40,807 nucleotides of DNA from positions 1 to 40,807 of the forward strand of contig DASTWV010000003.1 of NCBI GenBank assembly GCA_035765775.1. The letters are read 5' to 3'. The translations under genes and the position numbers were made by a program. Each line of letters begins with the position of its first letter. The first letter of the stretch is position 1. Shown one piece after another: positions 15,795 to 40,000 of this stretch. Below the pieces are notes generated by a model that saw only the letters and a program-made list of their open reading frames with translations, made no database searches and was not told the origin of the DNA. The DNA comes from Actinomycetota bacterium (GTDB lineage: Bacteria; Actinomycetota; CADDZG01; JAHWKV01; JAOPZY01).

Positions 15795-15862
15795 TATGCG
15801 GTCACTTGCCCGCGTTTCGGGGGCGAATCGACCTGCGATGATGTGGGCGGCGGCCCGGGTTC
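15795..15862 (+). repeat. Dispersed palindromic repeat, copy 1
   Basis: The 34-bp core is 15800-15833: GGTCAC at the left, AATCGACC at the right, with CCCG-CGTTT-CGGG in the middle. TATG precedes it, and similarity to copy 2 continues downstream (GACCTGC.A.GAT.TGGGC) to about 15850 or slightly beyond. It lies between the stop of the multicopper oxidase and a converging gene remnant. GGTC and GACC at the ends pair. Confidence 0.75.
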
Positions 15863-15867
15863 GGTGC

Positions 15868-15999
15868 CCCCCGCACGGAGATAAGGACCTCGCCGGTCTT
15901 GCCGGGCCCGATGGCGCCGGTCAGCCTCCCCACCTTCCCCGCCATTTCCACTGCACTGGCCCCCAGAGGGATCGGGCCACCCGTTGTCCGTCGTGCCAC
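15868..15999 (-). pseudogene. Remnant of a gene with an NfeD-like C-terminal domain segment
   Basis: The minus-strand frame from GTG 15999 reads a segment (EMAGKVGRLTGAIGPGKTGE, then VLISVRG) that resembles the OB-fold domain of NfeD-type membrane proteins. After ISVRG, at about 15868, resemblance stops and the frame runs through the dispersed repeat to a stop at 15802 (65 codons in all). The upstream membrane part is also absent. The end of the match falls within a few bases of the repeat edge, as if the gene was truncated when that sequence arrived. Family assignment is from motif memory only; a short unrelated ORF is possible. Confidence 0.35.
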
Positions 16000-16026
16000 G
16001 CCTCACAGGCGTTGTGGGTCCCCCGG

Positions 16027-16638
16027 TCAGTCCTTACCAGGTTTTTTGCGCGGTCGGTGGGCCCCGCCGGTGTCCAGGTAGCCCTCCAGCGTGGCGATGG
16101 TCTCGTCGAGCCACTCGACCCATCCCTGCTCCAGGCGGATGCCCAGGCGGAGCGTCAGCAGTGGGTAGGGGGGCGAGCCGCCGGGGTCCCACATCCGCAG
16201 GGCGGGCTCCATCTGCTGGTAGCCGGCGAGGAGATCGGCGTGGCGGGTGCGCCGCCCCCGCAGCATGGCCACCAGCGCTGCCGGCCCCACCTGGTCCCCG
16301 AAGAACACCTTGGCGAGCGCCTCGTCGTAGTAGCGCACCGAGGCCTCCGGCGAGTGGAGCCAGGACTCGAGCGCTGCCCGGCCGGCGGGCGTCAGGGTCA
16401 GGAGCCGCCGGCGCCGGGCATTGTCGCCCGCCTCCTCGGCCACCAACCCGTCCCGGACCAGGCGCCTCGCCTGCTGGTAGACCTGGCTGTGGGCGGCCGA
16501 CCAGAAGAAGCTCACCGTGCCCGCCATCGCCTTCTTCACGTCGTAGGCGGACATGGGGCCGAGGGCCAGGAACGCCATGAAGACGTAGTCCCCGGCGGGC
16601 AGCGGTCCCGGTTTGGCGGGCGGATCCGGACTTGACAT
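16027..16638 (-). CDS. PadR-family transcriptional regulator
   Basis: About 203 residues from ATG 16638 (MSSPDPPAKPG). The PadR winged helix is clear: VFMAFLALGPMSAYDVKKAM, then HSQVYQQARRLVRDGLVAEE and a wing with RRRRLLTLTPAGRAAL. The C-terminal half is the helical dimerisation region (PadR C-terminal, Vir-like). The open frame continues 11 codons upstream into the inverted repeat; I take the later ATG. It is divergent from an SCP2-like gene, with a perfect inverted repeat between. Autorepression plus control of the neighbour is the expected mode. The inducer is unknown. Confidence 0.9.
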   Translation of the reverse strand: MSSPDPPAKPGPLPAGDYVFMAFLALGPMSAYDVKKAMAGTVSFFWSAAHSQVYQQARRLVRDGLVAEEAGDNARRRRLLTLTPAGRAALESWLHSPEASVRYYDEALAKVFFGDQVGPAALVAMLRGRRTRHADLLAGYQQMEPALRMWDPGGSPPYPLLTLRLGIRLEQGWVEWLDETIATLEGYLDTGGAHRPRKKPGKD

Positions 16639-16659
16639 GGGTACAGGATGGACTATTGT
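16632..16659 (+). promoter_or_regulatory. Promoter for the SCP2-like gene
   Basis: TTGACA (16632-16637), a perfect -35, is followed after 16 bases by TATTGT (16654-16659). The -35 lies inside the first codons of the divergent padR gene, and the -10 overlaps the spacer of the PadR-type inverted repeat, so bound repressor would block it. Confidence 0.5.
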
Positions 16660-16678
16660 TTCGTAGTCCATCCTGTAC
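16641..16678. promoter_or_regulatory. Perfect 15-bp inverted repeat, probable PadR operator
   Basis: GTACAGGATGGACTA (16641-16655) and its exact reverse complement TAGTCCATCCTGTAC (16664-16678) flank an 8-base spacer, TTGTTTCG. It lies between padR and the SCP2-like gene, directly before the padR start. PadR sites are usually dyads of this size. As RNA it would form a 15-bp hairpin. Confidence 0.7.
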
Positions 16679-16716
16679 TATTGGCAGCCGAAGGGATGGG
16701 GACAAGGGAGGGGCAC

Positions 16717-17157
16717 GTGACCGAGGAGCGGCGATTCCTGGCGGTAATGATCGGCGGCAAGTCGGACGAGGAGATCGAGTCGTTCATCACCACGCTGGGG
16801 GGCATGGAGCCGGTCGTCGACCTGGTCTTCGCCCTGATGCCCCAGGAGCTGGATCCGGCGAAGGCCAAGGACTGCATCCTGGGCTGGGAGATCAGCTCCG
16901 GCGACCAGAAGGTGAGCTACCGCACCGAGGTGCGCAATGGCACGCTGACCGCCGAGAAGCGCGAGCCCGGCGACGACACCACTGCCACGATCATCATCGA
17001 CATGGTCGAGTTCCTGCGCATCATCATCGAGGAGCGCGAGGCGCCAAAGGACTACGTCCTGGGCAAGTTCAAGGTGAAAGGCGACCTGGTGCTGGCCTAC
17101 AACGTGCCGGAGATGTTCCCCTTCAAGGAGAAGCCCTCGCTCACCGCCTCTGCCTGA
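16717..17157 (+). CDS. SCP2-like sterol/lipid-carrier domain protein
   Basis: 146 residues from GTG 16717, chosen because AAGGGAGGGG lies just upstream; in-frame ATGs at 16696 and 16648 are less well placed. The sequence resembles the SCP2 fold: repeated strands (GWEISSGDQKVSYRTEV, NGTLTAEKREP, DTTATIIID), then MVEFLRIIIEEREAPKDYVLGKFKVKGD and a C-terminal helix. Members bind acyl chains or hydrophobic cofactors in the cytoplasm. Divergence from PadR and the shared operator suggest induction by a lipid-like or phenolic compound. No enzyme partner is adjacent, so the ligand cannot be guessed. Confidence 0.7.
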   Translation: MTEERRFLAVMIGGKSDEEIESFITTLGGMEPVVDLVFALMPQELDPAKAKDCILGWEISSGDQKVSYRTEVRNGTLTAEKREPGDDTTATIIIDMVEFLRIIIEEREAPKDYVLGKFKVKGDLVLAYNVPEMFPFKEKPSLTASA

Positions 17158-17180
17158 CGCGCGGCAGCACCTGCGCGGTC

Positions 17181-17215
17181 GTGCCACCACCATCTGGCAA
17201 CAGTGGTGGTGGCAC
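17181..17215 (+). terminator. Terminator hairpin after the SCP2-like gene
   Basis: GTGCCACCACCA (17181-17192) and TGGTGGTGGCAC (17204-17215) are perfect 12-bp arms around an 11-base loop, 24 bases after the stop codon. The tail is CCTTGAGG, not a clean T-run, so it is terminator-like rather than canonical. Confidence 0.6.
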
Positions 17216-17306
17216 CCTTGAGGAATCCCCCGCTTCCCCCTAACCTGGCGCCCGAACAAGGCGTCCGGGGTGGGCGCACTACGGAAGGAAGTGGCTGTAG
17301 GCCGGT

Positions 17307-17322
17307 GTGCGGTGCACCGCAC
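17307..17322. promoter_or_regulatory. Perfect 16-bp palindrome upstream of the secreted metalloprotease
   Basis: GTGCGGTGCACCGCAC is self-complementary and lies 28 bases before the GTG start at 17351. It could be a repressor site for the protease gene. No regulator is adjacent, and a convincing -10/-35 was not found. Confidence 0.35.
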
Positions 17323-17350
17323 ATGGCGTACGGCCAGGGAGGGGGTTCCT

Positions 17351-20212
17351 GTGACACGGTTCTCGTGGTGGCACCGCGCCCGGATGTCGGGCGCGGCACG
17401 TGCGTTGACCTGCCTGGCCGTGGCTGGCCTGCTGGTGGCCACGCTGGCTCCGCCGGCGCCCGCCGACTATGTCGGCACCGGCACGCACCCGTGGGCGGTC
17501 GTGCTGTGCAACTTCACCAACCAGCGGCTGGACCCGGCACCGGCGAGCTACTTCAACACCATGTACGGCAACGGGGGCTCGGGATCCGGGCAGTTCAACT
17601 TCGTCGACTTCTGGCACGACGTGTCCTTCGACCAGCTGTCGGTCGCCGGCACCACGGTGATCGACGGGTCCCACGCCGACGCCAACGGCTGGTACACCGT
17701 CCCGGAGACCCGCGACACCTGGGGCTACTCGCGGGACCGCTACGGCAAGATCGTCGACTGCGAGAACGCCGCCCTGCCGGACGTCAATTTCCACAACTAC
17801 TACGGCGTGGTGGCGATCTTCCCCGAAGCGGCCGGCAACCTGACGGCCGGGATCAGCGCCGCCGACACCGCAGTGACGGTCACCAACTCCAGCGGCGCGA
17901 CCTCCAACGTCACCACCACCAATTACTGGCCGGCCGCTCCGTTCATGATGAACATCCAGAGCGAGACCGTGAACGTCACCGCCGCGCACGACAACGGCGA
18001 CGGCACCGAGACCTTCACCATCACCCGTGCGGCCAACGGGACCACCGCGACGGCCCACCCGGCGGTGGACGGCAGCGGGAACGCGGTCGGCGCGGGCGTG
18101 CCCGGCGACTTCGGCGAGGTGACCGGCGGCAGCCATGTCGGCACCCCGCCCGGGTTGAGCAACGTCACACTGTCGGACACCAACACCTACCAGCTGGCGC
18201 AGGTCGTCCTGCCCAACGAGGCCAACCTCACCGGGGCCGGGCACGAGACCGGGCATGGGTTCGGCTACAACCACTCCCGGAAGCTCAGCTTCTCGACTGT
18301 CGACTACAAGGACGCCACCGACATCATGAGCGCCTACGACGGCACTTACGAGACCGGCTCGCTCGGCACCTCGTTCGGTGGGGCGGTGCTGGGCAGTGTG
18401 GTCGACGACAAGGGCCCCGGCCTGGATGCGATCGACCTGGACTTGCAGGGCTGGATCCCCTCCGGCCGGCACTTCGCCTTCAACAACGCCTCGCCGCCGA
18501 ACCAGTCCACCATCACCCTGCATGCGCTCTCCGACCCCAACGCCCGGTTGGGCAGCAGCGACTACCTGGAGGCGCGGGTGCCGGCATCGGTGACCATCCA
18601 GAACGCCGACCCGACCGGGGCGGCGCCCACCAGCCCGCCCACGTGCAGCGGGACCGGCTTCGGCTGCACCACCAGCCAGTACTACACGCTGGAGTACCGC
18701 CAGAAGACCGGCTGGGACTCCGGTTTCCCGGCCAGCGCCGTCGTGGTGCACCTGTTCGGGGCCGACAACCGCTCCTACTGGGTGGACCAGTTGCCGGACG
18801 GTCACAACGGGCTCCTCTACGCGGGCGATGAGTACGTCGACGCCGCCAACAAGACCTACGTCGCCGTCAACTCGATCTCGGGCTCCTCGGCGCAGGTCAC
18901 GATGGGCTCGGCGCAGATCACCCCGACCCTCGCCTGGGCCGGGGCCACCAGCGGCGACTTCAACGACCAGGTCACCCTCGCCGCCGATCTGAGCGTCGGG
19001 GGCGCCCCGGTGCCCAACGAGAGCGTGGACCTGTCGGCCGGGACACAGTCGTGCTCGGGTACCAGCGATGCCGCCGGGCACGTCTCGTGCACGATCACGC
19101 TGACCCAGGACCCGGCGGTGGTCTCTGCCTCGGCCTCGTTCGCCGGGGACAGCGCCTACGCCGCGGCCGGCAGCAGCCCGGCGTCCTTCACCATCAACCA
19201 GGAAGACACCAAGGTCACCTTCAACGGGGCCAGCGCCGGCGACTACCACGACGCGGCCACCGTCTCCGCCACGCTGACCGACCCGGCGGACGGCACCCCG
19301 ATCGCCGGGAAAGCGATCGGCTTCACCATCGGCACGAGCGCCACGGACACCTGCTCGGCGAGCACCGGGGCCGACGGGGTGGCGGCCTGCACCGTCACGC
19401 CGACCCAGGTCCCGGCGCCCTACACCATGCATGCGGCCTTCGCCGGGGACACCGACTACGCAGCCAGCGCCGACGCCAGCACGACCTTCACCATCACCAA
19501 GGAGGAGACCACCACCACCTACACCGGACCCACGGTGATCCTCCAGGGGGCCTCGGGAGTCACCCTCACGGCGGGGCTGTTCGAGGACACCACGGCCACG
19601 GCGGGCGACCCACCGACCGACCCGATCGCGGGGCGCACCGTCACCCTCGGCCTGGGCGCGCAGACGTGCACCGCGACAACCGCCAGCACCGGCACCGCCT
19701 CGTGCACGCTGACGTTCAGCGGCGCCCTGGGTCCCGAACCGCTGTCGGCCACCTTCGCGGGGGACGCCTACTACCTGCCATCGCAGGACACGTCGAAGAC
19801 CGCGATCGTCTTCGCTTTCCCCTCCCGGGGCGCCTTCGCCCTGGGCGACCAGACAGTGGCTGCCGGCAGGGCGCCGGTGACCTGGTGGGGGGACAACTGG
19901 TATGCCCTGAACCAACTTTCGGGCGGGGTGGCGAACCCGGCATTCAAGGGGTTCATCGGCACGATCTCGTTGCCGACCAGCACCCCGCCGGCGTCCTGCG
20001 GAGGCAGCTGGACCACGCTGCCGGGAAACAGCCCGCCGCCGACCTCGGGGGTCCCTACCTACATGGGCGTGATCGTCCCGAGCACGGTGGCCAAGTCCGG
20101 CAACGTCTTCTCCGGCAATTCGACCCACATCGTGGTGGTTGCCACTGACCCCGGCTACGGGCCGAACCCGCAGAGCCACGGCACCGGCACCATCGTGGCG
20201 ACCTTTTGCTGA
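17351..20212 (+). CDS. Secreted metzincin metalloprotease with three Ig-like repeats
   Basis: 953 residues from GTG 17351 (AGGGAGGGGG upstream); the longer frame from 17270 lacks a signal-like start. The signal peptide spans about 1-37 and ends near PAPA. The catalytic region holds the full zinc motif HETGHGFGYNH (298-308, HExxHxxGxxH) and a candidate Met-turn DIMSAYD (Met326). The segment FVDFWHDVSFDQLSVAGTTV recalls M6/M11-type peptidases. Three Ig-like modules follow (about 523-615, 617-718, 719-820), each with a conserved Cys pair and a SATFAGDxxY-like end, then a C-terminal domain with two further Cys. It probably digests protein outside the cell. The stop overlaps the next lipoprotein frame. 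Confidence 0.85.
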   Translation: MTRFSWWHRARMSGAARALTCLAVAGLLVATLAPPAPADYVGTGTHPWAVVLCNFTNQRLDPAPASYFNTMYGNGGSGSGQFNFVDFWHDVSFDQLSVAGTTVIDGSHADANGWYTVPETRDTWGYSRDRYGKIVDCENAALPDVNFHNYYGVVAIFPEAAGNLTAGISAADTAVTVTNSSGATSNVTTTNYWPAAPFMMNIQSETVNVTAAHDNGDGTETFTITRAANGTTATAHPAVDGSGNAVGAGVPGDFGEVTGGSHVGTPPGLSNVTLSDTNTYQLAQVVLPNEANLTGAGHETGHGFGYNHSRKLSFSTVDYKDATDIMSAYDGTYETGSLGTSFGGAVLGSVVDDKGPGLDAIDLDLQGWIPSGRHFAFNNASPPNQSTITLHALSDPNARLGSSDYLEARVPASVTIQNADPTGAAPTSPPTCSGTGFGCTTSQYYTLEYRQKTGWDSGFPASAVVVHLFGADNRSYWVDQLPDGHNGLLYAGDEYVDAANKTYVAVNSISGSSAQVTMGSAQITPTLAWAGATSGDFNDQVTLAADLSVGGAPVPNESVDLSAGTQSCSGTSDAAGHVSCTITLTQDPAVVSASASFAGDSAYAAAGSSPASFTINQEDTKVTFNGASAGDYHDAATVSATLTDPADGTPIAGKAIGFTIGTSATDTCSASTGADGVAACTVTPTQVPAPYTMHAAFAGDTDYAASADASTTFTITKEETTTTYTGPTVILQGASGVTLTAGLFEDTTATAGDPPTDPIAGRTVTLGLGAQTCTATTASTGTASCTLTFSGALGPEPLSATFAGDAYYLPSQDTSKTAIVFAFPSRGAFALGDQTVAAGRAPVTWWGDNWYALNQLSGGVANPAFKGFIGTISLPTSTPPASCGGSWTTLPGNSPPPTSGVPTYMGVIVPSTVAKSGNVFSGNSTHIVVVATDPGYGPNPQSHGTGTIVATFC

Positions 20213-20799
20213 CACCTGCCGCCGGGTCCCCGGCCTGGGCACCGATCCGCCTCGTGCGGACGGCGGCTCTGGCCGGGGCCCTGGCCTCGGTTCTAGCAGG
20301 GTGCTCGGGGCCGGCCGCGACGCCGGGCGGCTCCGTCCCGTCGTCGCCCGCGCCCCGCCTGCCCACACCCCCGGCCACAACCGCCGCGCCCGGGACGGCC
20401 CCGCTCCGACTTGTCACGGGCGACTCCGCCTATGGCGCCATCCTGGAGACCGGCGCCGGCTACCCGGTGTACGTCTTCTCCGGTGACGGCAGGGGCACCA
20501 GTCGCTGCACCGGGTCCTGCGCGGCCCAGTGGCCACCGGTGCCGAGCGCGGGCAGCGTGCTGCCGGGACCGGGAGTGCAGGCGGATCTCGTAGGCCGCAG
20601 CCGCCGGCCGGACGGGGGCGACCAGGTCACCTACGCCGGGCGCCCGCTGTACACCAACCGGGCCGACATCTCGCCCGGCCAGCTCAACGGGCAGGGCGCC
20701 TCCAGCTTCGGCGGCCAGTGGCACCTGGTCGATGCCTCCGGGCAACCGGCGTCCGCCCCGGTCCCGTCTCCCGCCCGGTCGGTCGGGGGCGGTGCCTGA
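20206..20799 (+). CDS. Lipoprotein of the COG4315 type (Yx[FWY]xxD repeats)
   Basis: About 197 residues. The signal peptide ends with lipobox VLAGC, followed by a long Pro/Ser/Thr linker. The folded part holds the family motif in YVFSGD, a Cys pair (SRCTGSCAAQWPPV) and a second copy-like motif (YAGRPLYTNRAD). These proteins are exported; function is not established. The frame begins at TTG 20206, overlapping the protease stop by 7 bases. GTG 20254 (VRTAALAGALASVLAGC) is an equally plausible start giving a compact signal peptide. Close linkage suggests co-transcription with the protease. Confidence 0.72.
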   Translation: MLTPAAGSPAWAPIRLVRTAALAGALASVLAGCSGPAATPGGSVPSSPAPRLPTPPATTAAPGTAPLRLVTGDSAYGAILETGAGYPVYVFSGDGRGTSRCTGSCAAQWPPVPSAGSVLPGPGVQADLVGRSRRPDGGDQVTYAGRPLYTNRADISPGQLNGQGASSFGGQWHLVDASGQPASAPVPSPARSVGGGA

Positions 20800-20800
20800 G

Positions 20801-21175
20801 TCAGCCGACGCTGACGAGGTCGACGACGAAGATCAGCGTCTCTCCCGGCTTGATGGCGCCGCCCGCCCCGCGGTCGCCGTAGCCCAGGTGGGGCGGGATC
20901 ACCAGCTGCCGGCGCCCGCCCACCTTCATCCCGGCGACACCCTGGTCCCAGCCCCGGATCACCCGGCCGGCACCCAGCGGGAAGCTGAAGGGCTGGCCCC
21001 GGTCCCACGAGGCGTCGAACTGGCGCCCGTTCGAGTGGGCGACCCCCACGTACTGGACCGTGACGTGCTTGCCCGCCGTTGCCTCGGCGCCCGTGCCCAC
21101 CTCGAGGTCCTCGATCTGCAGGTCGGTCGGGGGCGGGCCAGCGGGGACGGTGACGGCGGGCTTGGTCTGGGCCAT
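20801..21175 (-). CDS. FKBP-type peptidyl-prolyl isomerase
   Basis: 124 residues, a single FKBP domain without signal peptide, so cytoplasmic. Active-site residues are visible: Tyr in VTVQYVGV, FDASWDRGQPFSFPLGAGRVIRGWDQGVAGM, PPHLGYGDRGAGGAIKPGETLIF. It catalyses proline cis-trans isomerisation and assists folding. Ribosome-binding sequence GGAAAGGA lies eight bases before ATG 21175. Its stop is one base from that of the converging COG4315-like lipoprotein gene. Confidence 0.95.
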   Translation of the reverse strand: MAQTKPAVTVPAGPPPTDLQIEDLEVGTGAEATAGKHVTVQYVGVAHSNGRQFDASWDRGQPFSFPLGAGRVIRGWDQGVAGMKVGGRRQLVIPPHLGYGDRGAGGAIKPGETLIFVVDLVSVG

Positions 21176-21271
21176 GGCGGGGTCCTTTCCGGTGGGCAGC
21201 AGTCAGGCCACCCTAGCCGACACAACCCCGATTCCGGCGGGCCGGGGTGCCACCGGCAGTAAAGTGGGAAC

Positions 21272-22642
21272 GTGGGTTTCGCCTGGAAGCAGTGGCTCTC
21301 CGACGACCAGATGACCCTGCTGGCCGGCTACCGCGAGCACACCGGGCGAGCCGTCGAGTACGCCGCCAGCGCCTTCCTCGAGTGGCTGGACGGCGCCCCG
21401 GCGACCATCGCCCGCACCACCGAGTTCCTCTGGGGCTACCTACCCCTGCGCTTCCGCTCGGAGCCCGAGCCGCCGTCCGATTACCCCCAGCAGGTGGCGG
21501 ATCTGGTCGAGTTCGCCGGCCCCCGGCTGGGCTGGGACGTCGCCGGGTGTATGGCGGTATGCGCCGATACCGCGGCGTACGAACGCCGCTGGCGCACCCG
21601 CAACACCACCCCCCTGCCGCTGTGGCTCGAGGAGCTGCGGCTGTGGATGACCGCCCGGGAGCTGGAATGCTCCGTCCCGCCGGCGGACCCGGACGACCCG
21701 CTGCTTGCCCAGGCCCTCCGGGACCTCAAGCCCGGCACCGCCGGGCTCCTCGCCCAGGTGCGGGAGCCCGACCCCCGCATGCGCCCGCCCCTGCCCGAAC
21801 CGTGCACCGGGCTGGAGGCGGTGGGGGCCCTGCTGGAGGTCATCGGCGCCGGCGTCAGGCTCACGGACACCGGCCGGTTGGGCATGGCCCACGGGCGGGC
21901 CTTCCTGGAGACCATGGGATGGGACTACCTCCTGGACGAGAAGATCGGCAAGGAGATCTTCAAGACCCGAAGCACCTCGGAGATCGAGGCCATCGAGCTC
22001 ACCCGGGCATGGGCCGGCGCGGCCCGCCTGGTCCGGGTGCGCCAGGGCAAGCTCGTCCCGACCACCGAGGGCAGGCAGTTCGGCCGGGCGCCCATGGACG
22101 ACTGGTGGGCACTCTTCGACGCCGGCGCCCGCCGGCTCTCGTGGGCCACCTTCCGGTACCCGAGCCGCCGCCGGCCCTTCTGGGCCGAGTTGGTCGCCGA
22201 CCATGGCCCGGCCTACCTGCGGATGGCGCTCGATGCCGGCCGAAGCGGGATCGCCCTGTTGCCGGTGGCGGCCCTGACGTGGAGCCGGATCGCGGCGGCC
22301 TGGGTGACCGACCAGCTGAACCGCGACCAGGTCCGCTGGCAGGTGGACATGGTGTCGTCCAGCATCCGCCGCGGGGTCTTCCTCCCCCTCGAGCTGCTGG
22401 GTGCCGCCGAGACCTGGATCGGGGGGGCGGACGGCGCCGCCCGGCTGACGCCCATCGGTCTGTGGGCGGTGGCCCGGCTGCGCCGCCAGCTGCTGGAGGA
22501 AGCCGGCAAGGAGGCGCAGAAGGCGGCGGCCACCCGGCGGGAGCCGACCCCGAAGGGCGTGGTGGGCGGCGGCAACGTGATCGATCTCGCCGCTCGTAGG
22601 CCGGCCCGGCGATCGGGCTATTGGGGCACAGCGGCGCCCTGA
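21272..22642 (+). CDS. Unrecognised 456-residue protein with winged-helix-like segments
   Basis: I do not recognise the family with confidence. It has no signal peptide or membrane helix. Segments such as AGVRLTDTGRLGMAHGRAF and FKTRSTSEIEAIELTRAWAGAARLVRVRQGKLVPTTEGRQF look like two winged-helix units, an arrangement I recall from the C-terminal part of pRiA4b ORF-3-like proteins. The rest is rich in Trp and Arg; the C-terminus is basic and probably disordered. The start is GTG 21272 with weak GTGGGAA upstream. It stands alone between FKBP and the second dispersed repeat. Nucleic-acid binding is a guess. Confidence 0.6.
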   Translation: MGFAWKQWLSDDQMTLLAGYREHTGRAVEYAASAFLEWLDGAPATIARTTEFLWGYLPLRFRSEPEPPSDYPQQVADLVEFAGPRLGWDVAGCMAVCADTAAYERRWRTRNTTPLPLWLEELRLWMTARELECSVPPADPDDPLLAQALRDLKPGTAGLLAQVREPDPRMRPPLPEPCTGLEAVGALLEVIGAGVRLTDTGRLGMAHGRAFLETMGWDYLLDEKIGKEIFKTRSTSEIEAIELTRAWAGAARLVRVRQGKLVPTTEGRQFGRAPMDDWWALFDAGARRLSWATFRYPSRRRPFWAELVADHGPAYLRMALDAGRSGIALLPVAALTWSRIAAAWVTDQLNRDQVRWQVDMVSSSIRRGVFLPLELLGAAETWIGGADGAARLTPIGLWAVARLRRQLLEEAGKEAQKAAATRREPTPKGVVGGGNVIDLAARRPARRSGYWGTAAP

Positions 22643-22672
22643 ACCCTGCCCACGGCGTCGTTCGTCGGCCGC

Positions 22673-22725
22673 AATGAGGTCACGTTGCCGGTTTTCGCGG
22701 GCAAATCGACCTGCCACGATCTGGG
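22673..22725 (+). repeat. Dispersed palindromic repeat, copy 2
   Basis: Core 22678-22711: GGTCAC at the left, AATCGACC at the right. Inside, TTGCC and GGCAA pair around a 10-base loop. ATGA precedes it, and similarity to copy 1 continues to about 22725. It sits between converging genes, 30 bases after one stop and 17 bases before the next gene's stop. Confidence 0.75.
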
Positions 22726-22741
22726 CCGGCCTCCCGGGCCC

Positions 22742-23161
22742 TCAGCGCCCGGTGGTGGCCAGGGCGGTGCGCAGCACGTAGCCCACTTGGGCGGTCTGCA
22801 GGCCGGCACGCTGTTCGGTGTGGCCATCGGGCCAGCGGGTCTCGACGGTCCCTCGGGCGAGGTCCGGCCGGGGGCGGAGGACCGGCGGCTCGGCGGCGAC
22901 ATCCAGCTCGACGCCGCACCCGAAGGTGGCGAACAGCTGCGCCGCGGCGGTGCCCATGCCGGCCACCGTCACCGCCCCGACGGTCACCCTCCCGCGGGCT
23001 GCAAGGTGCACCGGGATCCCCTGGGCGGCAAGATATGCGGCCAGTGCGGCAGTCTTGGCGCCGCCGGGGTCAAGCCCGCCGGGGTTCCGCCCCACAAGGC
23101 TCTCGGGGTTGTCGGGAACGCCGTCAGGAACGGAAATGGTGTAGCCGGATGCGTCGCTCAT
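22742..23161 (-). CDS. Hypothetical protein, 139 residues
   Basis: Family not recognised. From ATG 23161 it reads MSDASGYTISVPDGVPDNPE, then ESLVGRNPGGLDPGGAKTAA and a predicted alpha/beta body (LAAYLAAQGIPVHLAARGRVTVGAVTVAGMG), with a C-terminus TEQRAGLQTAQVGYVLRTALA. No signal peptide. A TACTGT -10-like element lies 7-12 bases upstream of the ATG with no ribosome-binding site, so it may be leaderless. The open frame extends further but would overlap the divergent lipoprotein gene. Codon use matches its neighbours. Confidence 0.6.
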   Translation of the reverse strand: MSDASGYTISVPDGVPDNPESLVGRNPGGLDPGGAKTAALAAYLAAQGIPVHLAARGRVTVGAVTVAGMGTAAAQLFATFGCGVELDVAAEPPVLRPRPDLARGTVETRWPDGHTEQRAGLQTAQVGYVLRTALATTGR

Positions 23162-23222
23162 CGCCGGGGTCACAGTACCCGCCCACACCGCGCCTTCAGC
23201 CGCGCCCGGGATGCTGCCGGAC

Positions 23223-25331: not shown

Positions 25332-25336
25332 GCCGG

Positions 25337-25376
25337 CCTTGTGCGATCATGGCCTTGTACGATCATCGCCGTACAA
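25337..25376 (+). promoter_or_regulatory. Probable ArsR-type operator and promoter
   Basis: CCTTGTGCGATCAT (25337-25350) and CCTTGTACGATCAT (25353-25366) are direct repeats differing at one base, spaced 16 bases apart. Over the second lies an inverted repeat, TTGTACG (25355-25361) with CGTACAA (25370-25376). TACAAT at 25372-25377 can act as -10. The site is about 20 bases before the regulator's ATG, so autorepression is likely. Confidence 0.5.
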
Positions 25377-25395
25377 TGGGACCTGGAGCGTGACC

Positions 25396-30137: not shown

Positions 30138-30143
30138 CGGCAC

Positions 30144-31924: not shown

Positions 31925-31946
31925 GCACGCTCGAGAGGGGGTCCCC

Positions 31947-33149: not shown

Positions 33150-33158
33150 CCGCCGAAG

Positions 33159-33209
33159 GCTGGGAAGGCCACCATCCCGGCTGACCATCTGATCGCGAAA
33201 AGCATCGCG
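33159..33209 (+). terminator. Paired hairpins after the ABC importer operon
   Basis: GCTGGGA (33159-33165) pairs with TCCCGGC (33175-33181) through one G-T wobble; CGCGA (33194-33198) pairs with TCGCG (33205-33209) and GGTTCTCC follows. Together they probably end the importer transcript, although neither has a clean T-run. Confidence 0.4.
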
Positions 33210-33249
33210 GGTTCTCCCCTGCTCGGCATGCCTGCCCAAACCCCGGATC

Positions 33250-33278
33250 TTGACTTTTCTTCCGAGCACATGAATACT
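33250..33278 (+). promoter_or_regulatory. Promoter of the type VII-like locus
   Basis: TTGACT (33250-33255) and AATACT (33273-33278) are separated by exactly 17 bases, among the best sigma70-type matches in the window. A strong AAGGAGGG ribosome-binding site follows at about 33285. Confidence 0.6.
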
Positions 33279-33298
33279 CCTGGCAAGGAGGGAATTCG

Positions 33299-33451
33299 AT
33301 GGTCACTACTCGTATGCGTGTGTTTCTTGGCGGGAGCCGGCGGCCTGCGCCAGGCCTGGGTGCAGGAGCCGGCCCTTCCGTGAGTTTTCTGAGTTTGTCG
33401 AGTTCAAAGCCGCCGGGTGGTGCCGGCAGGAGGGAGTGGTCATGCCTGTGA
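33299..33451 (+). CDS. Short leader ORF of the type VII-like locus, 50 residues
   Basis: ATG 33299 follows AAGGAGGGAATTCG, an ideal ribosome-binding site behind a good promoter, so translation is likely. The peptide (MVTTRMRVFLGGSRRPAPGL, then Gly/Ala/Ser-rich, ending GRREWSCL) is basic, with no recognised domain. Its TGA at 33449 lies 10 bases inside the next gene (ATG 33442), so translation could feed into it. It may be a coupling leader peptide, an attenuator or a genuine small protein. Confidence 0.4.
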   Translation: MVTTRMRVFLGGSRRPAPGLGAGAGPSVSFLSLSSSKPPGGAGRREWSCL

Positions 33452-34029
33452 TCCGGGTGAACCCCGACAGCATCCGCCAGTACGCCGCCGCCGCCCAGGG
33501 CCAGTTCGACGCCGTGCGCAGCGAGCTGGTGGGGCTGGTGGACGACGCCGTCGGGGTGCGCTACTTCGGCCCCAACGCCGTCGACTTCAAGAGCCACTGC
33601 GGCCAGATGGCGGCCGATTTCAGCCTCCGCCTGGGGCAGGACCTGGGCCACATCGCTGACGCCGTGCGGGCCGCCACCTCGGCGGTCTCCGCATCGCTCG
33701 GCGGGGCGCCGATCTCGATCGCGGTCAACGGGGCCGCCTTGCCGGTGCCACCGGTGCCACGCGGCGACGGGTCGGTGGAGATCGACCCCACCGGGCTGGA
33801 AGCCCTGAAGCCGGTGGTGACCCGGCACATCTCGGCGATCGTGGACCAGATCTCCGCCCACCTGCGCACCCTGCAGGGCACCGATTGGGAGGGCCAGGCC
33901 AAGCAGAGCGCGGTCTCGGCGGTGAGCGGGTTCACCAGCGCGGCGCAGAGCCGGGCGAACGAGGCCCAGACCTCGATCACCTCCTACATCGACGCCCAGA
34001 TCAGCGACGTCATGGCGCGGGACCGCTGA
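33442..34029 (+). CDS. Tandem WXG100-like protein
   Basis: 195 residues from ATG 33442 (GGAGGGAG upstream; GTG 33436 also possible), helical throughout. The first half looks like a WXG100 helical hairpin with YFGPNAVDF (about 41-49) in the turn where WxGPNA is usual. The second half has a true WEG at about 149-151 (GTDWEGQAKQ). A Gly/Pro loop with SIAVNGAALPVPPVPRGDG joins the halves. WXG100 proteins are normally about 100 residues and form dimers, so this may be an intramolecular dimer. It lies directly upstream of an EssC-like ATPase, which makes it a probable type VII substrate or component. Confidence 0.72.
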   Translation: MPVIRVNPDSIRQYAAAAQGQFDAVRSELVGLVDDAVGVRYFGPNAVDFKSHCGQMAADFSLRLGQDLGHIADAVRAATSAVSASLGGAPISIAVNGAALPVPPVPRGDGSVEIDPTGLEALKPVVTRHISAIVDQISAHLRTLQGTDWEGQAKQSAVSAVSGFTSAAQSRANEAQTSITSYIDAQISDVMARDR

Positions 34030-34060
34030 CCGCCCGACCGCTGACCGCCCGACCGCTGGC
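34021..34060 (+). repeat. 15-bp tandem repeat across the stop codon of the WXG100-like gene
   Basis: GACCGCTGACCGCCC is repeated exactly at 34021-34035 and 34036-34050, with a partial third copy (GACCGCTGGC) to 34060. Each full unit contains the in-frame TGA, so slippage would leave the protein end unchanged. It separates the WXG100-like gene from the ATPase gene. Confidence 0.75.
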
Positions 34061-34084
34061 GGCTGAACCTGCGGCGGTGAGGCG

Positions 34085-37000
34085 ATGCAGCTCTTCCTGA
34101 GGGTCCGGCCCACCGGCGGCGAGGCCCGGGACCTGCGCATCGAGGTCGATCCGCAGGCGACGGTCGCCGCCCTGGCCTCCGAGCTTGCCCGGGCCCTCGG
34201 CGACCCCTCGGCCGTGCTGGGCCCGCCCGGCCGCGCCCCAGGCCTGTTCCGGGAGGTGGGCGGCGTGCGGATCGACCCGTACGCCACGGTGGCGGCCAGC
34301 GGGCTGGTCTCCGGGGCGCTGGTGGTGGTCGGGCCGCCCCCGCCCCGGGAGGCCGGGCGGCATCCGGAAGCCGGCGGCGAGGCCGCTGCGGCGGTGCTCG
34401 AGGTCCTCGGCGGGCCCGACGCCGGCAGGCGGGTTGACCTGACGCCCGGCCACCACCCGGTCGGGGCCGATCCCGGCCCGGGCCTCGCACTGCGCGACCC
34501 CTCCCTCGCCCCTCGCCAGTTCCTCCTCGACGTGCACCCCGACGGGCACTGCTTCGTGCGGCCCGATGTCGCGGCGCCCGGATCGGTGACCCTCGATGGC
34601 CAGCCGCTGCGGGCGGTGGCCGAGGTGCCCCCGGGCACGGTGCTGCGGGCCGGGGCTACGTCACTGGCAATCCGGCGCGGCGGAGGGCCTGGGCCACTGC
34701 CGGGTCCGGAGGCGGGTTGGGGCGCAGGGTCAGCGGTCGGCTCAGTGGCGGGCACCGTCGCCTTCCACCGCACCCCCTACCGGCCGGCCGCGGCCACCGA
34801 TCGGGCGTTGCCGGCCCTCGACGACATCCCCACCCGGCCCGATCCCCGCCGGTTCTCGCTGCTGGCCGGGCTGGCCCCGCTGGCGGGCGGCCTGATCCTG
34901 TACGCCTTCGTGCGCGAGCCCCAGTTCCTGGCGCTCACCGCCCTGACGCCGATCACCATGGGCGCCACCTGGTGGGACGAGCGCCGGTCCGGCGGCCGGC
35001 GGTTCGACCGGGAAGCCGCCCGCTTCCGGAACGAGGTGACCGCGCGCCGCCGGGAGGTGGCCGCCGCCCTGGACGCCGAGCGGGCGGAGCGCCTGCAGGC
35101 CGCACCCGACCTCGCCGAGCTGGCGGGCCGGGCCGAGCGCAGATCCGTGGACCTGTGGGCACGGGGCCGGGGCAGCGCCGACTTCCTCGCCCTGCGCCTG
35201 GGGCTGGGCGAGGTGGCCTCCCGGGTCCGGGCACCGGTGGGCACCCAGGGCGACGGCGACCTCCGCCGGGAGGCCGCCGGGATCCTCGACGGCCACGGGT
35301 CGCTGCAGGGCGTCCCCATCGTCCTCGCCCTCCGGGAGCTGGGGGCAGTGGCCCTGCTCGGCCCGCCGCCGCTGGTACACGGGCTGGCCGCCTCCCTGGT
35401 CCTCCAGGCCGCCGTCCTGCACAGCCCCGAGGACCTCATCGTCTTCGCCGCCCTGGCGCCCGGCAACCCGCTCGCCGATCAGGTGAAGTGGCTGCCGCAC
35501 ACCCGGTCGCTCAGCTCGCCGCTGGCCACCGAGCACGTCGTCGCCTCCGCCCGGGCGGGCCAGGAGCTGTGCTCCCGGCTGGTGGCCATCGCCCAGCAGC
35601 GGGCCGCCGGGCGCGACCGGGACACCGACCGGAGGTGGCCATGGCTCACCGTGCTGCTGGACGAGGCCCTGGGGCTCAATCCGTCGGTGGTGGCCCAGCT
35701 CCTGGAGTGGGCACCGGCCGCCGGGATGTCCGTGCTCTGGCTGACCGCCGACCCGGGCCGCGTGCCCCAGCGGTGCGAGGCGGTCGCCCGGTGCGTGCCA
35801 TCGGCCGAAGGGCACTCAGAGCTGTGGTTCCGGGACTCGGGCCGGGCAGTGGTGGCATTCGCCATCGAGACGCTGGACCGGGAGCCGGCCGACCGCGCGA
35901 TGCGGGCGCTCGCCCCGGTGCGGGACGCCAGCTCGGCGACGGTTACCAGCGCCATCCCCCGGGTGGTGCCGCTGTTCGACGCCCTCGGGTTCGACGAGAC
36001 GCTGCTGGAGCCCGAGCGCCTGGGCCGGGCGGTGGTCGAGCGCTGGGTGGCCGAGCGGGGCTACGCCCTGGAGGCCCCGGTCGGCATGGCCGCCGATGGG
36101 CCGCTCACCATCGACCTGGTGGCCGATGGGCCACACGCCCTCATCGGCGGCACCAGCGGGTCAGGCAAGAGCGAGCTGCTGGTGGCGCTGGTCAGCGGGC
36201 TGGTCTCCCGGCATTCCCCGGACCGGCTCAACCTGCTGTTCGTCGACTACAAGGGAGGCGCCGCCAGCTCGGTGTTCCGCGACGCCCCCCACACGGTGGG
36301 CTACGTCACCAATCTGAACGGCGACCTGGCCAACCGGGCGCTGGTCTCGCTGCGGGCCGAGCTCAACCGGCGGATGCACCTCATGGCGGGCCGGGCCAAG
36401 GACCTCGGCGAGATGCTGGCGACCGACCCGGACACCGCCCCGCCCAGCCTGGTGATCGTCGTGGACGAGTTCGCCACGCTGGTCAAGGAGGTCCCCGAGT
36501 TCGTCCCGGGCATCGTCGACATCGCCCAGCGGGGGCGGAGCCTGGGCATCCACCTCATCCTGGCCACCCAGCGGCCGTCCGGCGCGGTGAACGAGAACAT
36601 CCTGGCCAACACCAACGCCCGGATCAGCCTGCGGATGATCGACGGCGCCGAGTCCTCGTCGATCATCGGAACCCCCGATGCCGCCGCCATCCCCGTCCCC
36701 CTGCGGGGCCGGGCCTTCGCCCGGCTCGGTCCCGGCGAGCTGATCGCCTTCCAGTCCGCCTACGGTGGAGCACCCCTCGACCGGGGTGCCAGCCGGATCG
36801 AGATCGCCGACTTCTCCGCGGGCGGAGTGCGGGGGCCTGGGCTGGCGCTCGGCTCCCGGGCCGAGGCGCCGCCGGGGAAGACCCAGCTCGAGGCACTCCT
36901 CGGTGCCGTCAAGGCGGCGGAGGAGACCCTGCACATCCGCACGCCGCGGGCCCCCTGGCTGGACGAGCTGCCGCCGGTCGTCCCTCTGGAGACGGTGATG

Positions 37001-38530
37001 CGGGGCTACCGGTCGCGGCCCGGCCGGTGGAGCATACCGGTGGGCGAGTACGACGACCCCCAGTCCCAGCGCCAGGACACCGTGGCCCTCGACCTGGAGG
37101 AGAGCGGCGGGCTGGCGATCTACGGCGGCGGCGGGTCGGGGAAGACCACGGCGCTGCGCACGGTGGCAGCCGCCGCGGTGCTCGCCGCACCGCCCGAGGG
37201 GGTCGCCCTGCTGGCCATCGACTTCGCCTCACGGGCGCTGCGCGCGCTAGAGGGCCTGGAGGCGTGCGCCGGCGTGGCCACCGCCGACGACCTCGAGGCG
37301 GTCACCCGCACCCTGGCGGTGGTCGAGCAGGAGATCGCCCGCCGGCGCGCCCTGCTGGCGGGGGCCGAGACCCTGAGCGCCTACCTGGCTGCCGGGGGTC
37401 CGCCCATGCCCCGGGTCCTGCTGCTGATCGACGGCTACCCCACCCTGCGTGACGTCCTGACCGGCGAGGGCGCCAGCGCCGCCATGCACGGCTGGCTGGA
37501 GCGGCTGCACCGCCTGGTGGCCGAGGGCCGGCAGGTGGGCGTGCACACCGTCATCACCGCCGACCGCCCCAACGGGGTGGCGCCGGTGCTGGCCTCGGCG
37601 ATCGGGCGGCGTCTCATCCTGCGCCAGGTGGACGAGCGCAGCCTCATCGAGCTGGGCGTGCCCGCCGCCCGGGCCCGCGGGGTGGAGCTCGGCCCCGGCC
37701 GGGGGTTCCTCGACGACCTCACCGTGCAGGTGGCCTGCGTGACCACCGAGGGCGGGCCGACCGACGGGGGGGCGCAGGCCGCCCGGCTGGCCAAGACCTC
37801 CGCCCGCGCCCGCCCGGCCAGCGTCCCGCCCTGGCTGCGGAGCAGCCCGCTGCGGGACGTGGAAGCCCTGCCCCCGGTGGCGGCGGGGACCGGTCCTCTG
37901 GTGGCAGCGTTGGGGGTCGAGGACGTGAGCCGGGCGCCGGTGCTGGTGGACCTCGCCGAGGGATCGCTGATCATCGCCGGGCCGCCGAAGTCGGGCCGCT
38001 CCAGCGCGCTGGCGGCCCTCCTCGCCGGGCTGCGCTCACCGGACGTGCTGGTGGCCGGTCTGGCCTCCTCCCCGCTGGCCCGGCAGGCGGTGCGGTGGCG
38101 GGCAGCCTTCGGCGACCCCACGGCATTGGCGGTCGCCGCCGGGGAGTTGGCGCAGTTGGCCACCAGCTACCCGGACATCATCCGGGTGCTGGTGCTGGAC
38201 GACGCCGACCGCCTCCTCGAGGACCCCGCCGCCTGGGCGGCCCTCGACCCGCTGGCCCGCTGCGACGCCGTGCGGGTGGTGGCCGCTGTGGAGACGGCCA
38301 GCCTGCTGTCCGGCTACTTCCAAAGCCTGCTCATGCAGCAGGTGAAGAAGGTCCGGCGGCGGTTCCTGCTGCAGCCGATGGACGCCGGGGAACTGCAGTC
38401 GGTGCTGGGCATGCGCATGGCGCTGCGACCGGGGCTGACCATGCCCGCCGGCCGCGGGGTCCTGCTGGCAGGGCGGAGCCCGCTGGTCCTGCAGGTGGGC
38501 ACCCCGGGAGTGGGCGGGGCGGGGAGCTGA
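34085..38530 (+). CDS. EssC/EccC-type type VII secretion ATPase with N-terminal FHA-like region
   Basis: 1481 residues. N-terminal beta-rich, ubiquitin/FHA-like segment (1-85) and an FHA-like domain (about 100-200), then two TM helices (about 257-297), then three FtsK/SpoIIIE-type ATPase modules. Module 1 is intact: GGTSGSGKSE (about 687) and VIVVDEFATL (about 788). Module 2 has GGGGSGKTT (about 1014) but its Walker B ends IDGYPTL (no Glu). Module 3 has GPPKSGRSS (Arg for Lys, about 1297) and VLVLDDADRLL. One active and two probable substrate-binding modules match the known EccC/EssC pattern. The single-chain FHA form is more like Firmicutes EssC than the split mycobacterial EccCa/Cb. It drives export of the flanking WXG100-like proteins by inference. 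Confidence 0.9.
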   Translation: MQLFLRVRPTGGEARDLRIEVDPQATVAALASELARALGDPSAVLGPPGRAPGLFREVGGVRIDPYATVAASGLVSGALVVVGPPPPREAGRHPEAGGEAAAAVLEVLGGPDAGRRVDLTPGHHPVGADPGPGLALRDPSLAPRQFLLDVHPDGHCFVRPDVAAPGSVTLDGQPLRAVAEVPPGTVLRAGATSLAIRRGGGPGPLPGPEAGWGAGSAVGSVAGTVAFHRTPYRPAAATDRALPALDDIPTRPDPRRFSLLAGLAPLAGGLILYAFVREPQFLALTALTPITMGATWWDERRSGGRRFDREAARFRNEVTARRREVAAALDAERAERLQAAPDLAELAGRAERRSVDLWARGRGSADFLALRLGLGEVASRVRAPVGTQGDGDLRREAAGILDGHGSLQGVPIVLALRELGAVALLGPPPLVHGLAASLVLQAAVLHSPEDLIVFAALAPGNPLADQVKWLPHTRSLSSPLATEHVVASARAGQELCSRLVAIAQQRAAGRDRDTDRRWPWLTVLLDEALGLNPSVVAQLLEWAPAAGMSVLWLTADPGRVPQRCEAVARCVPSAEGHSELWFRDSGRAVVAFAIETLDREPADRAMRALAPVRDASSATVTSAIPRVVPLFDALGFDETLLEPERLGRAVVERWVAERGYALEAPVGMAADGPLTIDLVADGPHALIGGTSGSGKSELLVALVSGLVSRHSPDRLNLLFVDYKGGAASSVFRDAPHTVGYVTNLNGDLANRALVSLRAELNRRMHLMAGRAKDLGEMLATDPDTAPPSLVIVVDEFATLVKEVPEFVPGIVDIAQRGRSLGIHLILATQRPSGAVNENILANTNARISLRMIDGAESSSIIGTPDAAAIPVPLRGRAFARLGPGELIAFQSAYGGAPLDRGASRIEIADFSAGGVRGPGLALGSRAEAPPGKTQLEALLGAVKAAEETLHIRTPRAPWLDELPPVVPLETVMRGYRSRPGRWSIPVGEYDDPQSQRQDTVALDLEESGGLAIYGGGGSGKTTALRTVAAAAVLAAPPEGVALLAIDFASRALRALEGLEACAGVATADDLEAVTRTLAVVEQEIARRRALLAGAETLSAYLAAGGPPMPRVLLLIDGYPTLRDVLTGEGASAAMHGWLERLHRLVAEGRQVGVHTVITADRPNGVAPVLASAIGRRLILRQVDERSLIELGVPAARARGVELGPGRGFLDDLTVQVACVTTEGGPTDGGAQAARLAKTSARARPASVPPWLRSSPLRDVEALPPVAAGTGPLVAALGVEDVSRAPVLVDLAEGSLIIAGPPKSGRSSALAALLAGLRSPDVLVAGLASSPLARQAVRWRAAFGDPTALAVAAGELAQLATSYPDIIRVLVLDDADRLLEDPAAWAALDPLARCDAVRVVAAVETASLLSGYFQSLLMQQVKKVRRRFLLQPMDAGELQSVLGMRMALRPGLTMPAGRGVLLAGRSPLVLQVGTPGVGGAGS

Positions 38531-38531
38531 G

Positions 38532-38972
38532 ATGCAGGCCTCCAAGGACATCGTCTTCGACTACCAGGACGCACTGGAGTTGGCCCGCGAGCTCTACGCC
38601 GTGGCGGACCAGCTCGAAGGCACCCTCCGCGCCCGGAGCACGCAGGCCGGGGAGGCGCAGGCCGGGTTCTCGGGGCCGCACGCCGACACGTTCGCCGCCT
38701 GGGTGGCGCGCGAGGTCGCCGACGGCCACGCGTTGGCGGCCGCCCTGCGCAGCGATGCCGCCCTGTGCGCCCAGGCCTGGAAGAAGGCCATGGACGACGA
38801 GAACCGGGTGATCTACGGTCGCCACGTGGACCGCCTGAAGAAGCAGCGGTCGGGCCTCACCACAGTCTGGGAGGACCGGTTCGGGTACCACTACCCGCCG
38901 GAGCCCGACCCGGTCCCCATCCCGCAGCCGCCTGTTTTCGCCGAGACCGCCGGCTTCGTGCACTACTCGTAG
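38532..38972 (+). CDS. WXG100-like helical protein with an FSG turn
   Basis: 146 residues. Residues 1-105 form a helical hairpin, with FSGPHADTFAAWVARE in the turn where WxGPxAxxF is usual, then a second long helix. The C-terminal tail is Tyr/Pro-rich (EDRFGYHYPPEPDPVPIPQPP). The ATG at 38532 immediately follows the ATPase stop (38528-38530), so the genes are co-transcribed. Probable substrate or chaperone of the EssC-like protein; the tail could carry the export signal. No classical YxxxD/E motif was found in a clear position. Confidence 0.65.
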   Translation: MQASKDIVFDYQDALELARELYAVADQLEGTLRARSTQAGEAQAGFSGPHADTFAAWVAREVADGHALAAALRSDAALCAQAWKKAMDDENRVIYGRHVDRLKKQRSGLTTVWEDRFGYHYPPEPDPVPIPQPPVFAETAGFVHYS

Positions 38973-39123
38973 CGTGACCTCGGGGCGCTTCCGGAGAGCT
39001 GAGACACCAGACATGGCCGGACCGACTTGCGCCGCTCCTGCCCGACGGGCAAACTACATCGGTGTAAGCAATGATTCCGGGCACATAGGTGGGTACACAG
39101 AGAGGGACAGGGAGGGAGACGCG
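38973..39123 (+). promoter_or_regulatory. Leader of the winged-helix gene with two small dyads
   Basis: No gene is supported here. TGCCC-GAC-GGGCA (about 39040-39052) and TACA-TCGG-TGTA (about 39055-39066) are adjacent inverted repeats, possible operator sites. GGAGGGAG precedes ATG 39124. The open frame continues upstream to 38974 but its translation looks non-coding. Confidence 0.35.
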
Positions 39124-39732
39124 ATGAGTGCGCAGCCTCGCATCCAGCCGGTTCGGCCCTCGGACGGTGCCCGACCGGCTGCCCGCGCCCGCTTCCGGAG
39201 CCCGGCCGAGGCCCGGGGCTACGCCCCGCTCGACCCGGTCTTCGAGGACACTGAACTCGACCTCTCGGTGCGCTTCACCTACTTCATCCTCAAGCAGCAC
39301 GCCTGGTCTGCCCCCGGTACCGACCTGGGCACCGACGAGATCGCCCGGCTCCTCGGCCGCAGCACCGGGCAGGCCTACCGGAACCTGCTGGCCCTGGTGG
39401 ACGCCGGCCTGCTCTCGATTGATGCCCGCGCCCCGGACGGCCAGCCCGACACCTTCATCCTCGAGCCCCTGGAGGAGCGCTACCGCGAGCGTCCGCCGGG
39501 GCCCGAAGCGAAGGGCAACCGCCCGATCCCGTTCCGCCGCCGCCCGGGCACCGACGACAACCGGGGCGCCGTTCTGCCGCTCATGACCCCGGAGCGGAGA
39601 GCCTACGAGGAGCGCCTCGCCGCCGGCCTGCCCCCTGGGGTCCCGGCGAAACCGATCGATCCCCACCTGCGGGAACTGGGCCTCGCCCGCTCCCGGGCCT
39701 TGCGCCGGCAGCTCCAGCAGCCCAACTCCTAA
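39124..39732 (+). CDS. Winged-helix protein, replication-initiator/HTH_36-like
   Basis: 202 residues from ATG 39124. The recognisable part is LDLSVRFTYFILKQHAWSAP, followed by GTDEIARLLGRSTGQAYRNLLALVDAGLLSIDAR, a winged helix of the type found in plasmid replication initiators and helper proteins. The rest is basic and Pro-rich, probably disordered. It may regulate the upstream type VII-like genes or act in replication. A pair of DnaA-box-like 9-mers lies 26 bases after its stop, which makes the second idea worth testing. No Rep catalytic motif is present. Confidence 0.65.
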   Translation: MSAQPRIQPVRPSDGARPAARARFRSPAEARGYAPLDPVFEDTELDLSVRFTYFILKQHAWSAPGTDLGTDEIARLLGRSTGQAYRNLLALVDAGLLSIDARAPDGQPDTFILEPLEERYRERPPGPEAKGNRPIPFRRRPGTDDNRGAVLPLMTPERRAYEERLAAGLPPGVPAKPIDPHLRELGLARSRALRRQLQQPNS

Positions 39733-39757
39733 CGCCGACCGGGACTCGTACACAGGC

Positions 39758-39777
39758 TTGTCCACATGTGTTGACAA
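39758..39777. other. Inverted pair of DnaA-box-like 9-mers
   Basis: TTGTCCACA (39758-39766), which matches the high-GC actinobacterial DnaA-box consensus, faces TTGTCAACA on the other strand (39769-39777). Together they make a near-palindrome, CTTGTC...GACAAG. Only two sites are seen, so this is not evidence for an origin; it may also serve as a hairpin terminator for the winged-helix gene. Confidence 0.35.
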
Positions 39778-39949
39778 GTGCGGCTTCCCTCAGAGGCGAT
39801 CAGAGTAGGCCAGACGGGTGCTGAGCCCCGTCCCGGTGGGGGAACCAACGCGATGGTGCCCTGAACTTTCCAGGACCTTCTGCCGGCGACGAGGCGTGCG
39901 CCGGCCCGGGTCTCTGTGAACCGATATGGTCGGTATAGCAAGATCGCGG
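39778..39949. other. Intergenic region with two small dyads
   Basis: No gene is supported. GCCGGCG (39882-39888) pairs with CGCCGGC (39899-39905), and ACCGA-TATGG-TCGGT (39920-39934) is a short palindrome in an AT-richer stretch. These could be a terminator and an operator; no regulated gene starts here. Confidence 0.3.
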
Positions 39950-39961
39950 GGATTGTAGGGC

Positions 39962-40000
39962 GGTCGATTCGCCCCCAAACGCGTGCGAAGTGACCTCATA
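39962..40000 (-). repeat. Dispersed palindromic repeat, copy 3 (inverted)
   Basis: Core 39962-39995 on the minus strand: GGTCAC at the left, AATCGACC at the right, with TTCGC and GCGAA pairing inside, preceded by TATGA. It lies between the converging winged-helix and HD-domain genes. The core length is again 34 bases. Confidence 0.75.

What the first reader, a model, noticed from the sequence alone, without database searches (positions are those of the whole stretch)
15795..40000. A dispersed 34-bp palindromic element at three converging 3' ends
Cores at 15800-15833 (+), 22678-22711 (+) and 39962-39995 (-) are all exactly 34 bases, begin GGTCAC and end AATCGACC, and are preceded by (T)ATG(A). 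The 20 bases between vary, but the internal stems differ in a paired way: TTGCC/GGCAA in copy 2, TTCGC/GCGAA in copy 3, CCCG/CGGG in copy 1. Each copy lies between two genes that converge. Conserved edges, changing but paired interiors and this placement suggest a selected hairpin: a REP-like element or bidirectional terminator. Copies 1 and 2 share about 15 further bases downstream. The TATGAGG start and TCGACC end are also loosely echoed in the insertion-sequence leader (TATGAGGGTCGGGCCTCGACC), which might hint at origin. I do not recognise the family.
Basis: partly seen in the sequence, partly recalled or inferred. Interest (0 to 1): 0.75.

Follow-up and report, generated by a model that had tools for sequence, protein, structure and literature searches.

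The report
REP-like repeats at gene ends
The three short palindromes belong to a small family of repeated non-coding elements scattered through one bacterial genome, mostly just behind the ends of genes; they look like the known REP repeats rather than transcription terminators, and a mobile element is found sitting inside their partner repeat.

Summary
The three 34-bp cores are real and lie between converging genes. The genome holds at least 15 copies of this unit ("A"); the exact pattern is absent from the 23 other genomes searched in its class. A is one block of a mosaic repeat: it is often followed by a segment M, which also follows a second unit C, GGGAC-N4-GTCCC-N7-GGGAC-N4-GTCCC (42 places; none in 395 other genomes sampled from the phylum). 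Both are extragenic and enriched between converging genes (A 10 of 14, C 23 of 41; 21% expected). The REP-like reading is supported. The terminator reading is not: no T-tract, ordinary folding in context. The "paired changes" are not covariation: A has fewer two-sided changes than shuffles, C no more than chance. In C the boxes are about eight times better conserved than the spacer, whose length is constant in the 34 uncut copies compared; this suggests recognition of sequence rather than of a hairpin. No Y1/RAYT transposase is detected, so what copies the repeats is unknown. An IS1111-like insertion sequence directly follows a C half-box at all six left ends found, two of them the window's own ends. 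Filed as a new REP/BIME-like family without a detectable RAYT.

The parts
15800..15833 (+). unit A, copy 1 (imperfect palindrome)
   Evidence: 19 bp after the stop of gene 11500-15780(+)
15834..15864 (+). segment M behind copy 1 (TGCGATGATGTGGGCGGCGGCCCG...)
   Evidence: 92% identity over 15800-15864 to the 68-nt composite query
22678..22711 (+). unit A, copy 2
   Evidence: 35 and 30 bp from the stops of the two converging genes
22712..22731 (+). degenerate segment M behind copy 2
   Evidence: match 22678-22731, 84%
39962..39995 (-). unit A, copy 3 (no M attached)
   Evidence: 40 bp from the stop of gene 40036-40659(-)
40648..40678 (-). segment M plus half a box of unit C, ended by the insertion sequence
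40679..40807 (+). left end of an IS1111-like insertion sequence (contig ends inside it)
1..129 (-). left end of a second copy of the same insertion sequence
130..140 (-). half-box of unit C (GGGGACATTTG) beside that insertion sequence

Best explanation
Unit A is a REP-like extragenic palindrome and one building block of a BIME-like mosaic repeat (blocks A, M, C and longer tails) found only in this genome among those searched. SHOWN: it is repeated, palindromic, extragenic and concentrated behind stop codons, above all between converging genes; the blocks occur in different combinations; an IS1111-like element lies at a fixed point of block C. INFERRED: short blocks were multiplied by an unidentified copying activity and survive where they disturb no promoter; the outer half-sites of A and the boxes of C are what that activity, or a host protein, recognises. 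At 3' ends they may incidentally hinder exonucleases or RNA polymerase, as proposed for REPs elsewhere, but no terminator role is needed.
For: 9 exact A copies against 0 reversed; 15 distinct places with a covariance model. Converging gaps: A 10 of 14, C 23 of 41, expected share 0.211, p 7e-5 and 1e-6; A outside the window 7 of 11, p 0.003. Nearest stop codon 19-50 bp away in 10 of 15 A copies. Segment M behind both A and C. C at 42 places, 0 in 23 other genomes of the class and 0 in 395 others of the phylum sample; A pattern 0 in 23. IS left ends: 6 of 6 directly follow a C half-box, in line with the reported choice of REPs by IS110-family elements and with REP preference for converging genes (PMC1525189, passages read).
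Against: Copy numbers (15 and 42) are below the >100 usual for REPs (PMC2817692, passages read), though both are lower bounds. No Y1_Tnp match in the assembly, so the mover is unknown. The outer half-sites of A look conserved partly because 9 of 15 copies were found by them. Box conservation in C is stronger than plain decay of a selfish repeat would give, which leaves room for a host function. The gap background comes from stretches chosen around copies, not from a random sample.
Confidence: 0.75

Rival explanations
1. A is a bidirectional transcription terminator kept by selection for its hairpin.
For: Close behind stop codons and enriched between converging genes; isolated cores fold better than shuffles (mean z -2.9 on the + strand; 18 of 26 core/strand folds below -2, approximate shuffle).
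Against: No covariation: 1 pair with a two-sided change against a shuffle mean of 2.2. No T-tract; the terminator scan of window 1-40000 lists none at A and no excess overall (6 against 4.8, 4 against 4.0). In 61-nt context 5 of 6 folds are like shuffles (z -0.26 to -0.40), the sixth z -1.8, while the converging gap without A (8778-8864) holds a perfect GC-rich hairpin, z -2.7 and -2.0 on the two strands. Perfect strong hairpins are, however, rare at converging ends here too: 3 of 42 gaps. 15 copies against some hundreds of converging gaps (my extrapolation from 53 in about 0.41 Mb of chosen stretches).
Confidence: 0.1
2. Unit C (and perhaps A) is a paired operator: two GGGAC-N4-GTCCC sites 21 bp apart, two helical turns, bound by a dimeric protein that organises the chromosome or acts at gene ends.
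For: In the 19 C copies whose blast match is at least 60 nt, box sites depart from the majority in 6 of 380 cells, the spacer in 18 of 133, N4 in 20 of 152 (p 3e-7 and 2e-7). Spacer 7 nt in all 34 uncut copies compared. N4 is 88% A+T in 42 copies. No covariation in the middle pairs, p 0.50. GGGACTTNNGNCCCT is given as a stringent DosR consensus (PMC6448022, passages read).
Against: Mostly at gene ends, not promoters (5 of 41 in diverging gaps). In the 359 kb examined boxes almost never occur singly (1 of 64), unlike a regulon, but those stretches were chosen around copies and single boxes elsewhere were not searched for. Absent from the relatives searched. Recognition by a mobilising enzyme would give the same pattern.
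Confidence: 0.15
3. The long forms are internally deleted relics of an IS110-family element, and A or C are its end sequences.
For: Nine places in the stretches share a tail GCGGCTTGACTATCTATAGGAGCATC with 0-3 mismatches; the best (L234) reads in frame ..RRRLNRGGDRQANAALLPKS..*, four others a shorter part. Pfam's only match to the L234 reading is Transposase_20, E 0.075, 13.9 bits against a cut-off of 21.3.
Against: Weak match; no full-length parent found: the genome's matches to the two IS110 domains are the IS1111-like copy and one sub-threshold place, E 0.8. Many A and C copies stand without the tail.
Confidence: 0.15

Closest known systems
REP sequences (repetitive extragenic palindromic), as defined in PMC1525189
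   Same: 33-36 bp imperfect palindromes, extragenic, preferring converging genes; unit C is occupied by an IS110-superfamily IS
   Different: fewer copies found; no GTAG/GTGG head; no RAYT detected
BIMEs (mosaics of REPs with intervening segments), PMC2817692
   Same: units A and C in varying order and orientation with a shared segment M
   Different: two different palindromes; no regular alternation or tandem arrays seen
IS1111-type insertion sequences with seekRNA, PMC11187229
   Same: subterminal inverted repeats, 515-nt non-coding region after a 333-aa DEDD transposase, one precise target
   Different: seekRNA not identified; an 8-nt target match in the non-coding region is no more than chance
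DosR/DevR operators, consensus in PMC6448022
   Same: GGGAC-N4-GTCCC-like shape with A/T-rich middle
   Different: in pairs with fixed spacing, mostly at gene ends; no regulator sought here

Membership tests
REP sequence | repetitive palindrome of 21-65 bases in extragenic space | tested here: met
   A 33-36 bases, 15 places; one (C51) overlaps only a 42-aa call that I take for spurious
REP sequence | preference for converging gene ends | tested here: met
   10 of 14 against 0.211 expected; outside the window 7 of 11
REP sequence | high copy number, usually >100 per genome | tested here: not met
   A 15 (150 of 1817 candidates scored, so a lower bound), C 42; PMC2817692 says 'usually'
RAYT-associated REP | Y1 transposase (RAYT) in the genome | tested here: not met
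   PF01797 no match in the 95.8% complete assembly; control rings in 5 of 14
RAYT-associated REP | GT(A/G)G head before the palindrome | tested here: not met
   flanks of 15 copies; commonest is TGA|GGTCAC
BIME | inverted REPs in alternating orientation with intervening segments | tested here: inconclusive
   A in either orientation beside M-C, shared M, no tandem arrays seen
Intrinsic terminator | stable GC hairpin followed by a T-tract | tested here: not met
Structured RNA under selection | covariation above shuffles | tested here: not met
   A; C; Rfam: 0 matches at gathering score in the window
MITE | parent transposase with matching ends and target duplication | tested here: inconclusive
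   no parent among the three families searched; no duplication seen by eye; other transposase families not searched
IS1111-type IS (the element at the window ends) | DEDD transposase, subterminal inverted repeats, downstream non-coding region, specific target | tested here: met

The most novel reading that the evidence does not exclude
A mobile mosaic repeat has scattered a phased pair of protein-binding sites (two GGGAC-N4-GTCCC boxes exactly 21 bp apart) to gene ends across one genome, creating a new set of docking sites for a host protein, while an RNA-guided IS1111-like element uses the same sites as landing pads.
Probability: 0.15. Interest if true: 0.7.

Novelty: new member of a known kind. 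Interest (0 to 1): 0.38.

Why it matters
It is a REP-like family in a genome without a detectable RAYT, so something other than a Y1 transposase may have copied the repeats. The link between unit C and an IS1111-like element adds a case of such targeting. The strict box conservation with fixed spacing makes a protein-binding test straightforward.

Tried and rejected
Covariance test on A, 13 copies and 15 copies: no signal. One search used a wrong structure and means nothing; model R1 had a mis-set structure and was replaced by R2. I take these for chance matches; the collection's one scan was thereby spent. Origin of A from the IS end (TATGAGG): given no weight, not tested by a call. seekRNA guide in the IS non-coding region: longest match 8 nt, reached by 244 of 1000 shuffles. 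Viral contigs: one stretch with an exact C doublet, amid unrelated GGACCAAGGTCCC repeats; plasmid and phage collections: no match with one 216-bp copy. IS transposase in viral contigs: 20 stretches matched a pattern, none confirmed. Relic peptide against solved structures: none. Strong perfect hairpins as a rule at converging ends: 3 of 42 gaps. Print: searches listed REP, RAYT and IS110 papers and nothing that I recognise as this family; the words of C and M are in no paper of the library, the 11-mer GCAAATCGACC in 7 that by title are unrelated. The library holds open-licence papers only.

Full report
Observation. The three cores are exactly as described. The window is the whole contig C3 of a 3.60-Mb, 62-contig assembly, 95.8% complete. 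GGTCAC-N18..22-AATCGACC occurs 9 times in the genome and 0 times in the reversed control. A covariance model built from 13 copies finds 15 distinct places at E<=1 (16 rows, one place on both strands), 13 of them strong; only 150 of 1817 first-look candidates were scored, so 15 is a lower bound. The two weak ones, C51:10424 and C35:42645, look genuine because bases outside the core match the family (TGA before the core, TCA after it).

Anatomy. Unit A is GGTC-(AC)-TTTGCCCGC-loop-GCGGGCAAA-(TC)-GACC with a conserved 2x2 mismatch. In 15 copies the outer pairs depart from the majority in 2 of 120 cells, the internal mismatch in 3 of 60, the inner stem in 42 of 267 and the loop in 16 of 68; 9 of the 15 were found by their outer bases, so this contrast is biased. 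Behind A often comes M (TGCGATGATGTGGGCGGCGGCCCG). M also follows unit C, GGGAC-N4-GTCCC-N7-GGGAC-N4-GTCCC (one search scored 40 of 86 candidates). C occurs at 42 places with up to 2 mismatches, reversed control 0 in this genome (the pattern is its own reverse complement, so both strands list the same places). In the 359 kb held at that point, 52 boxes lay in exact doublets and 12 elsewhere, 11 of these in degenerate or IS-cut doublets by my reading; eight permuted control palindromes gave 0-3 each. Those stretches were chosen around copies, and single boxes in the rest of the genome were not searched for.

Distribution. blastn of a C query: 1 of 31 genomes, the own one. C pattern: 0 of 23 other genomes of the class with up to 2 mismatches (one of them has a control match) and 0 of 395 others of a phylum sample with up to 1 mismatch (two have a control match). 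A pattern, exact: 0 of 23. The lists show one other genome of the same family and none of the same genus, so 'lineage-specific' has only that resolution.

Placement. With gene calls of at least 55 aa, A is in converging gaps in 10 of 14 (the fifteenth, C57:277, has no gene on its left), C in 23 of 41 (the forty-second lies in a called gene). Converging gaps hold 0.211 of intergenic bases with the 35-base cores removed; p 7e-5 and 1e-6. With tiny calls included A gave 8 of 13 two-sided gaps and C 16 of 36, against 12 of 137 gaps of 60 bp or more without an element (that list held 39 C matches, some of them IS-cut). Without the three window copies A is 7 of 11 (p 0.003), or 5 of 9 strong ones (p 0.02). 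The nearest stop codon lies 19-50 bp away in 10 of 15 copies, at 0 in one, at 73-95 in three; one copy lies between diverging genes. The GGTCAC side faces the nearer stop in 11 of 14 (my count; three of the 14 differences are small), but M and C on the other side force part of this.

Hairpin or sequence? A: 83.9% of cells paired against 85.7% in shuffles, one pair with a two-sided change against 2.2. C: 110 of 168 middle pairs formed against 109.5 in shuffles, p 0.50. Isolated A cores do fold (mean -14 kcal/mol, mean z -2.9, approximate shuffle), but in 61-nt context 5 of 6 window folds are ordinary. Nine C cores tested fold strongly on both strands (18 of 18 z below -2), so C is the better hairpin. 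In the 19 C copies whose blast match is at least 60 nt, boxes depart in 6 of 380 cells, spacer 18 of 133, N4 20 of 152 (Fisher p 3e-7 and 2e-7); finding the copies still depended partly on the boxes. Constraint on sequence and spacing, not on pairing, fits recognition by a protein: a mobilising enzyme or a host factor. These data do not separate the two.

The insertion sequence. A 1608-bp element at C35:7961-9568 has a 333-aa transposase with DEDD_Tnp_IS110 and Transposase_20 domains, 515 nt of non-coding DNA behind it, and subterminal repeats TATGAGGGTCGGGC, which fits the IS1111 description (PMC11187229, abstract and passages read). A genome-wide search finds 6 left ends; all 6 directly follow GGACATTTG, the half-box of C, 5 of them GGGGACATTTG. 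Six right ends seen in the loci I held are followed by TGTCCCACT, but those loci were fetched by similarity to C, so that count is not independent. Both ends of the window are such copies, which probably explains why the contig stops there.

Verdict. A new REP/BIME-like repeat family without a detectable RAYT. The terminator and covariation claims are not borne out for A. The most open question is what reads the C boxes.

Noticed in passing
window 1-140 and 40648-40807: Both contig ends lie in copies of one IS1111-like insertion sequence that directly follows a C half-box.
   Followed up: yes
L234, L224, L246, L253, L255: Several copies carry a decayed tail that reads like the C-terminus of an IS110-type transposase and ends CTATCTATAGGAGCATC; Pfam support is below cut-off.
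   Followed up: partly
window 8778-8864: A perfect GC-rich hairpin (AGCGGGCCCCTTCGGGGGCCCGCT) lies between converging genes: a plausible ordinary terminator.
   Followed up: partly
window 11473-15780 and 17270-20212: A 1435-aa open frame with one stretch (about residues 139-245) matched by two multicopper-oxidase models; the second frame has bacterial Ig-like (Big_3_5) matches.
   Followed up: no
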